Of a DNA stretch of 64,000 nucleotides, positions 1,011 through 54,028 are shown in pieces. The notes under the pieces are model-generated. The model saw only the letters and a program-made list of their open reading frames with translations. It had not been told where the DNA came from and did no database searches. This stretch comes from Campylorhamphus procurvoides (lineage: Eukaryota; Chordata; Aves; Passeriformes; Dendrocolaptidae): assembly GCA_013396655.1 (NCBI GenBank), contig WBMV01004992.1, positions 248,001 through 312,000 on the forward strand. The letters run 5' to 3'. The stretch's first letter is position 1; every line of letters begins with the position of its first letter. Position numbers and translations under genes: made by a program.

Positions 1011-1060
1011 ATAGAATCACAGAATTATAGAATGGCTTGTGTTGGAAGGGACCTTAAGGG
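1011..1060 (-). mobile_element. CR1 LINE 3' tip (outer element, part 1)
   Basis: This is the extreme 3' end of a CR1 LINE read on the - strand: the terminal 8-bp repeat (seen here as 'agaatcacagaattatagaat') followed by the 'ttggaagggacctt' block. The element breaks off at about 1060 and resumes at 1343, where the next expected CR1 sequence ('ttccaacctgcccc') begins. The two pieces are one insertion split by a younger CR1. Confidence 0.85.
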
Positions 1061-13746: not shown

Positions 13747-13758
13747 ACTTATCATTTT
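13747..13758 (+). repeat. Left 12-bp target-site duplication of LINE
   Basis: The 12-mer ACTTATCATTTT here is repeated exactly at 14554-14565, immediately after the (GAT)n tail of the retrotransposon. It marks the upstream insertion boundary. Confidence 0.85.
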
Positions 13759-13768
13759 CTTGGAATGA

Positions 13769-13911
13769 TTAGGATGTCCCCCCACTTTCCTCAAAATGGT
13801 CATCCTGCTACACGAGGATCAGCACAGCCAAGTCAGATATGGCAATGCACTCTCTGAGCCCTTTCCAATTACCAATGGTGTGAAACAAGGTTGCGTTCTT
13901 GCACCAACCCT
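13769..13911 (+). pseudogene. Reverse transcriptase fragment (LINE)
   Basis: This open frame runs into the N gap. Read in the frame of the ATG at 13796 and extended upstream to about 13769, it shows 'LGCPPTFLKMV', 'LLHEDQ' and then 'PFPITNGVKQGCVLAPT'. These are conserved blocks of non-LTR retrotransposon reverse transcriptases; the G-V-K-Q-G-C-V-L-(A/S)-P block sits before the catalytic YADD-type motif. The catalytic block itself would fall in the gap and cannot be seen. A stop codon lies just upstream (13766-13768) and the insertion boundary is at 13759. The fragment has no N-terminal endonuclease and cannot be functional. Confidence 0.85.
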
Positions 13912-14278
13912 NNNNNNNNNNNNNNNNNNNNNNNNNNNNNNNNNNNNNNNNNNNNNNNNNNNNNNNNNNNNNNNNNNNNNNNNNNNNNNNNNNNNNNNNN
14001 NNNNNNNNNNNNNNNNNNNNNNNNNNNNNNNNNNNNNNNNNNNNNNNNNNNNNNNNNNNNNNNNNNNNNNNNNNNNNNNNNNNNNNNNNNNNNNNNNNNN
14101 NNNNNNNNNNNNNNNNNNNNNNNNNNNNNNNNNNNNNNNNNNNNNNNNNNNNNNNNNNNNNNNNNNNNNNNNNNNNNNNNNNNNNNNNNNNNNNNNNNNN
14201 NNNNNNNNNNNNNNNNNNNNNNNNNNNNNNNNNNNNNNNNNNNNNNNNNNNNNNNNNNNNNNNNNNNNNNNNNNNNNN
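13912..14278. other. Assembly gap (367 N)
   Basis: A run of N interrupts the retrotransposon. In full-length relatives, the distance from the GVKQGC block to the C-terminal segment seen at 14279 should be well over 367 bp. Either the gap size is an estimate or the copy is internally deleted. Open frames drawn across it are meaningless. Confidence 0.95.
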
Positions 14279-14470
14279 TGGTCCACCCTGGCCTCCAATC
14301 GGGAGAAATGGAGACACACCATCCATAGCGCTGCTGCTTCCTTTGAGAACACACGCAGAATCAGTCTGGAGGAAAAAAGGCAGCGCAGGAAGAACCGTGC
14401 CTCGCCAGTAGTGCCAATGGAGACTTTCCGCTGTGCCTTTTGCAATCAGACATGCCTATCTCAACATTGA
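14279..14470 (+). pseudogene. LINE polyprotein C-terminus with partial zinc finger
   Basis: A 63-codon frame leaves the N gap and stops at 14468-14470. It begins 'WSTLASNREKWRHTIH', contains a basic stretch 'EEKRQRRKNRA' and ends with 'CAFCNQTC'. This layout (W..LA.DR..WR, basic linker, C-x2-C zinc knuckle or finger) matches the C-terminal tail of a non-LTR retrotransposon family I know from several animal groups. The histidine half of the finger is not in this frame. The +1 frame continues the similarity to the (GAT)n tract, where it reads as a run of Asp, so a single-base indel near 14455-14470 probably broke the frame. This is a dead copy. Confidence 0.75.
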
Positions 14471-14526
14471 CCTTTTTATCAAGCATGGGAAGAGCCCTTG
14501 CAACTCTTCATTTGCGAAGCCAAGCC

Positions 14527-14553
14527 ATGATGATGATGATGATGATGATGACG
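14527..14553 (+). repeat. (ATG/GAT)n 3' tail of the LINE
   Basis: An ATG trinucleotide tract, seven perfect GAT units then GAC, ends exactly where the right target duplication begins. It therefore acts as the 3' tail of the retrotransposon and is not an unrelated microsatellite. Such tails are known for RTE-type elements. Confidence 0.85.
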
Positions 14554-14565
14554 ACTTATCATTTT
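14554..14565 (+). repeat. Right 12-bp target-site duplication of LINE
   Basis: A perfect copy of 13747-13758; the bases on either side differ, so the duplication is exactly 12 bp. Confidence 0.85.
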
Positions 14566-53431: not shown

Positions 53432-53729
53432 ATGGGCTTTTCATGGGGTTAGTCTCCTTCAGGTACCCATCTGCTCCGACTTGGGTTCCTCCAGGGGCTA
53501 CAGGTGGATAGCTGCTCCACCACAGACCTCCATGGGCTTCAGGGGCATAGCTGCCACACCATGGTCTTCTCCACAGACTGCAGGAGAATCTCAGCTGCTC
53601 TCCCTCCTTCTGCACTGGCTTTGGTGTCTGCAGGGCTGTTGCTCTCACATATTCTTACTCCTCTCTTCTGGATGTTGCTGGTATTCTTCAGTCTTTTTTC
53701 CCCCCCCTTCTTAAATATGTTATCTCAGA
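53432..53729 (-). repeat. 298-bp direct repeat, copy 1
   Basis: Identical as far as I can compare to 53731-54028, including the eight-C homopolymer. Both copies are LTR U3 sequence. Copy 1 ends directly at a single N. Confidence 0.95.
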
Positions 53730-53730
53730 N
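53730..53730. other. Single N at duplication junction
   Basis: One ambiguous base lies precisely between two identical 298-bp copies. This is the signature of two contig ends placed side by side without merging their overlap. Confidence 0.9.
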
Positions 53731-54028
53731 ATGGGCTTTTCATGGGGTTAGTCTCCTTCAGGTACCCATCTGCTCCGACTTGGGTTCCTCCAGGGGCTAC
53801 AGGTGGATAGCTGCTCCACCACAGACCTCCATGGGCTTCAGGGGCATAGCTGCCACACCATGGTCTTCTCCACAGACTGCAGGAGAATCTCAGCTGCTCT
53901 CCCTCCTTCTGCACTGGCTTTGGTGTCTGCAGGGCTGTTGCTCTCACATATTCTTACTCCTCTCTTCTGGATGTTGCTGGTATTCTTCAGTCTTTTTTCC
54001 CCCCCCTTCTTAAATATGTTATCTCAGA
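53731..54028 (-). repeat. 298-bp direct repeat, copy 2
   Basis: The second copy continues into the true 5' part of the LTR (54029-54196). If one copy is removed, the LTR is about 566 bp. Confidence 0.95.

What the first reader, a model, noticed from the sequence alone, without database searches (positions are those of the whole stretch)
13747..14565. RTE-like LINE insertion in a bird-type genome, with perfect 12-bp target duplication
The insertion has reverse-transcriptase motifs, a C-terminal zinc-knuckle remnant and a (GAT)n tail, and is bounded by ACTTATCATTTT on both sides. Bird genomes are dominated by CR1, and non-CR1 LINEs are rare. AviRTE, described from several tropical bird lineages and filarial nematodes and attributed to horizontal transfer, is one candidate. 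I cannot confirm family identity. The element could instead be another unreported RTE-related family. The clean duplication shows real integration in this genome, not contamination of the assembly.
Basis: partly seen in the sequence, partly recalled or inferred. Interest (0 to 1): 0.78.

Follow-up and report, generated by a model that had tools for sequence, protein, structure and literature searches.

The report
Truncated AviRTE retrotransposon copy in bird

Summary
A LINE fragment at 13759-14553 lies between exact 12-bp copies of ACTTATCATTTT (13747-13758, 14554-14565). Only 428 nt are readable; 367 are N (13912-14278). The two readable pieces share one frame and match the reverse transcriptase and C-terminus of RTE-type LINEs. 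The 3' end matches the published AviRTE 3' primer (AviRTEfull-4R; Suh et al. 2016) base for base, and an ATG-repeat tail follows. In an IQ-TREE tree the window and all 20 bird-named relatives in the lists seen (antbird, manakins, tyrant flycatchers) form one group, 100/100, apart from 58 other RTE proteins. In a cruder tree of all 240 rows, 18 of the 20 stay with the window (support 1.0). Best reading: a 5'-truncated, dead AviRTE copy inserted by target-primed reverse transcription. CR1 or an unreported RTE family fits poorly. The N gap is about 513 nt too short for an intact element. Host species, copy number and empty orthologous sites stayed untested: the own-genome search did not complete in 14 tries, and no AviRTE DNA consensus was available. 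A host outside the seven published bird lineages stays open but unlikely. Interest is low.

The parts
13747..13758 (+). Target-site duplication, left copy (ACTTATCATTTT)
13759..14553 (+). 5'-truncated AviRTE LINE copy, split by an assembly gap
13759..13911 (+). Reverse-transcriptase piece; in-frame TGA at 13766, then open
13912..14278 (.). Run of 367 N; intact relatives would need about 880 nt here
14279..14467 (+). C-terminal piece of the RTE protein: basic stretch and start of the C2HC finger, then an early stop
14468..14526 (+). Decayed end of the finger and short 3' UTR; 14516-14534 (running into the tail) equals the reverse complement of primer AviRTEfull-4R
14527..14553 (+). ATG-repeat tail (8.3 perfect units to 14551, then CG)
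14554..14565 (+). Target-site duplication, right copy (ACTTATCATTTT)

Best explanation
It is a dead, 5'-truncated genomic copy of the LINE family AviRTE (RTE superfamily) in a bird genome. An AviRTE endonuclease nicked the target, the element RNA ending in ATG repeats was reverse-transcribed from the nick, synthesis stopped early inside the reverse-transcriptase coding region, and repair of the staggered break duplicated 12 bp. The copy then decayed: an in-frame stop near the left end, a shifted frame and early stop in the C-terminal finger, and possibly an internal deletion hidden in the N gap. Shown here: ends, duplication, tail, homology, decay. Inferred from knowledge of LINEs: the order of the insertion steps.
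For: Exact 19/19 match to the reverse complement of AviRTEfull-4R at 14516-14534; 0.03 matches expected by chance at up to 3 mismatches. C-terminal piece: the six highest-scoring of 124 matching relatives are all bird-named (68-78% identity); the next, not bird-named, has 59%. RT piece: best of 143 is Lepidothrix, 43/48, then Pitangus, 41/48. IQ-TREE, 79 rows: window + 20 bird-named rows on one side of a branch, 100/100. FastTree, 125 rows: window + 14 bird-named rows, 0.92. FastTree, all 240 rows: window + 18 of 20 bird-named rows and nothing else, 1.0. At 31 columns where bird and other majorities differ the window follows birds at 20, others at 4, neither at 7. The 3' UTR read as protein (KPSHDD) occurs in 3 of 152 relatives, all Willisornis. 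The left edge of homology coincides with the end of the left duplication.
Against: No AviRTE DNA consensus was compared; the family call rests on one primer site and on proteins that their sources do not call AviRTE. All bird-named rows are from suboscine families; the other six published bird lineages and the nematodes do not appear by name in the listed hits (the last two lists show 120 of 354 and 120 of 882). In the 240-row tree 2 of 20 bird-named rows fall outside the group. Bird-named P0019 is only 61% identical at the C-terminus while unnamed P0038 has 62%. How widely other RTEs share the 3' primer site could not be controlled (searches found no DNA). The gap is about 513 nt shorter than expected.
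Confidence: 0.92

Rival explanations
1. It is a copy of a different, unreported RTE family of this bird, close to AviRTE but acquired separately.
For: The window's place inside the bird group is unresolved, and 16 of 110 residues differ from the bird majority. No DNA consensus was compared. Suh et al. say related RTEs are known from crocodilians and turtles, and these are hardly sampled here: one turtle protein, P0213, was tested and lies outside the group.
Against: Exact published 3' primer site; 100/100 group with proteins from AviRTE host families; the window's end branch (0.083) is shorter than those of several Willisornis copies in the same tree.
Confidence: 0.05
2. It is CR1 or BovB, LINEs long known in amniotes.
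For: A CR1-type end lies 12.7 kb away, and the RT motif is shared among LINEs: a recalled CR1 RT motif scores 47 at the window's RT piece, null maximum 44.
Against: ATG-repeat tail unlike the CR1 tail (recalled). RTE relatives score up to 231 at the same piece. BovB was not compared by sequence; Suh et al. describe AviRTE as distant from it.
Confidence: 0.01
3. The two pieces are separate insertions brought together across the gap by assembly.
For: The gap (367 N) is too short for one intact element.
Against: Same strand, order and frame, one duplication around both, and both pieces closest to the same bird proteins.
Confidence: 0.02

Closest known systems
AviRTE (RTE superfamily LINE; Suh et al. 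2016, PMC4844689)
   Same: 3' end (exact primer site), short 3' UTR, RT and C-terminal protein sequence as in host birds, target duplication of like length (12 bp here, 13 bp in their ODC example), decayed copy (they report no intact master genes in their assemblies)
   Different: This copy lacks everything upstream of the middle of the RT; its interior is hidden by Ns and seems too short. DNA identity to a consensus not measured
RTEs of aquatic animals (hits named Branchiostoma, Penaeus, Amphiura, Plakobranchus and others)
   Same: Same protein layout; among the 25 best RT rows the ones not bird-named are 75-83% identical
   Different: Among the 30 best C-terminal rows the ones not bird-named are 51-62% identical; outside the bird group in the trees
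BovB
   Same: RTE superfamily, also spread by horizontal transfer
   Different: Described as distant from AviRTE; not compared by sequence here

Membership tests
AviRTE | 3' end carries the published AviRTE 3' primer site | tested here: met
   0 mismatches at 14516-14534 (primer)
AviRTE | Groups with RTE proteins of published host birds and apart from other RTEs | tested here: met
   100/100 with all 20 bird-named rows against 58 of the 121 well-filled other rows; with all 240 rows, 18 of 20 bird-named rows at 1.0
AviRTE | 3' UTR of about 40 bp | tested here: inconclusive
   The original stop codon is lost in this copy
AviRTE | DNA identity to an AviRTE consensus in the published range (83-99% between subfamilies) | not testable with these tools
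   Look-ups in supplementary files are capped at 0 and no bird DNA collection is on hand
AviRTE | 5' UTR with the AviRTEint primer sites | not testable with these tools
   The copy is 5'-truncated; the other nine primers have no site with fewer than 5 mismatches in the window
AviRTE | Many copies in the host genome | not testable with these tools
   The genome search unanswered in 14 tries (last); no second copy in the 64 kb by primer site or by tblastn of 152 relatives
LINE insertion by target-primed reverse transcription | Target duplication, 3' tail, 5' truncation | tested here: met
   truncation by comparison with relatives
CR1 | CR1 3' tail and CR1-type RT | tested here: not met
   ATG tail; recalled CR1 RT motif scores 47 against a null maximum of 44
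BovB | Sequence closest to BovB | not tested
   No BovB sequence was compared

The most novel reading that the evidence does not exclude
The window's host is a bird outside the seven published AviRTE lineages, so that this copy marks a further, unreported horizontal transfer. The host could not be named, and the copy's place within the bird group is unresolved, so this is not excluded.
Probability: 0.08. Interest if true: 0.5.

Novelty: already known. Interest (0 to 1): 0.15.

Why it matters
AviRTE is a published case of LINE transfer between birds and filarial nematodes, and single copies can serve as presence/absence markers within a host lineage. One decayed copy adds nothing new to that story unless its host lies outside the known lineages.

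Tried and rejected
Scans for the AviRTE 3' end in viral contigs (25-base pattern) and genome contigs (23-base pattern) gave 0 matches, and a scan for the full-length relative P0039 in viral contigs confirmed none, so there is no DNA control for how widely other RTEs share this 3' end. A blastn of the 3' piece against phages found nothing. Pfam gave only matches below the curated cut-offs: RVT_1 12.6 bits (29.6) and Zn_ribbon_Elf1 13.3 bits (29.8). Rfam and tRNA scans of the window found nothing. Dating was not attempted for lack of a DNA consensus. AviRTE papers were sought. Of the 10 that hold the name, PMC4844689 was read in named parts; passages were seen from PMC12651973, PMC6542046, PMC13155389 and PMC13295347; PMC8665684 gave no hit in its main text; the other four (PMC5791352, PMC5556988, PMC7846101, PMC8872380) were seen in listings only. 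The passages seen name no bird host outside the seven lineages; that is not a full survey.

Full report
What is there. The region was read directly. A 12-bp exact direct repeat bounds it, with no extension on either side. Between the copies lie 153 readable bases, 367 Ns and 275 readable bases. One frame is open from 13769 to 14467 across the Ns: LGCPPTFLKMVILLHEDQHSQVRYGNALSEPFPITNGVKQGCVLAPT on the left and WSTLASNREKWRHTIHSAAASFENTRRISLEEKRQRRKNRASPVVPMETFRCAFCNQTCLSQH on the right. A TGA at 13766 precedes it in frame. A perfect ATG repeat of 8.3 units closes the element.

Chance. Any of seven registers of the 12-mer occurred in 2 of 5000 dinucleotide shuffles of the 1 kb ending at 13758; at the element's edge, within 10 bp, in 0 of 5000. 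Loose matches are common in the window (17 at up to 2 mismatches, 14.9 expected); the exact pair at the two ends is what counts.

Family. Of Suh et al. 2016 (PMC4844689) I saw the abstract and outline, part 1 of 6 of the text, the figure legends and table, part 1 of 2 of the methods and the paleobiogeography section. The methods print AviRTE primers. The 3' primer AviRTEfull-4R matches 14516-14534 without mismatch; 0.03 matches are expected at up to 3 mismatches. The other nine primers have no site with fewer than 5 mismatches in the window, as expected for a copy without its 5' part and with its middle hidden. The paper reports a 3' UTR of about 40 bp, a 13-bp duplication at one insertion, seven bird lineages and two nematode clades.

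Relatives. A protein search with the window's own frame found 37 proteins. A second, with both pieces behind a run of X, found 354, of which 120 were listed. A third, with the Pseudopipra relative P0007, found 882, of which 120 were listed. Of the 152 proteins held after the second search, 143 matched the RT piece (score over 90) and 124 the C-terminal piece (score over 60). Best at the RT piece is Lepidothrix coronata, 43/48. The six best at the C-terminal piece are all bird-named. Bird names seen in the lists: Willisornis, Manacus, Pseudopipra, Pitangus, Lepidothrix, Myiozetetes, Corapipo. Three were looked up (Thamnophilidae, Pipridae, Tyrannidae); the families of the other four, and that these families are suboscine, is recalled, though the paper's legend names manakins, tyrant flycatchers and antbirds as suboscine. 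The turtle Pelodiscus appears once (P0213). No filarial nematode is named in the lists.

Trees. Rows were projected on a 404-residue template from P0039. In the main tree all 20 bird-named rows were kept; of the others only those at least 93% filled were eligible (121), and 58 of these were used. The window and the 20 bird-named rows form one side of a branch, 100/100; inside it the window's place is unresolved, nearest by path to Willisornis copies. An earlier FastTree of 125 rows gave window + 14 bird-named rows at 0.92. As a control, a FastTree of all 240 rows, partial ones included, gave window + 18 bird-named rows and no other at 1.0, with 2 bird-named rows elsewhere; the turtle row lies outside at distance 0.65, and here the nearest row is Lepidothrix, so the window's place inside the group changes between trees. 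P0020, whose source name is cut off, was not in the main tree; it lies outside the group, on 56 filled columns only. Some unnamed rows could be birds. The window equals the bird majority at 94 of 110 residues and the other majority at 78.

The gap. Of 115 relatives with both pieces, 59 have 293 residues between them, 35 have 291 and 9 have 287. The Ns hold 122 codons. An intact interior would need about 880 nt, so about 513 nt are missing from the assembler's estimate or from the element.

How it works. A 3' tail, loss of the 5' part and a target duplication fit target-primed reverse transcription with early stop. Full-length relatives carry endonuclease and reverse-transcriptase domains (Pfam labels). 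The insertion steps are inferred from knowledge of LINEs; their footprints are shown. With its 5' part gone and its frame broken at both ends, this copy cannot encode a complete RTE protein.

Host. A CR1-type 3' end at 1011-1049, minus strand, supports a bird-type genome (CR1 letters recalled). The species remains unknown: the own-genome search was unanswered in 14 tries and no bird DNA collection is on hand.

Verdict. It is very probably a copy of a known family and an ordinary dead one.

Noticed in passing
53432-54028: Two identical 298-bp blocks (53432-53729 and 53731-54028) flank a single N at 53730: very likely an unmerged overlap of two contig ends, i.e. a false duplication by assembly, not a real tandem repeat.
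   Followed up: yes
1011-1049, minus strand: CR1-type LINE 3' end (ATTCTGTG-like tail behind CCTTCCAACACAAGCCATTCT); supports a bird-type host (consensus recalled).
   Followed up: partly
13912-14278: The N gap inside the element is about 513 nt shorter than intact relatives would need, yet the two pieces are in one frame across it.
   Followed up: partly
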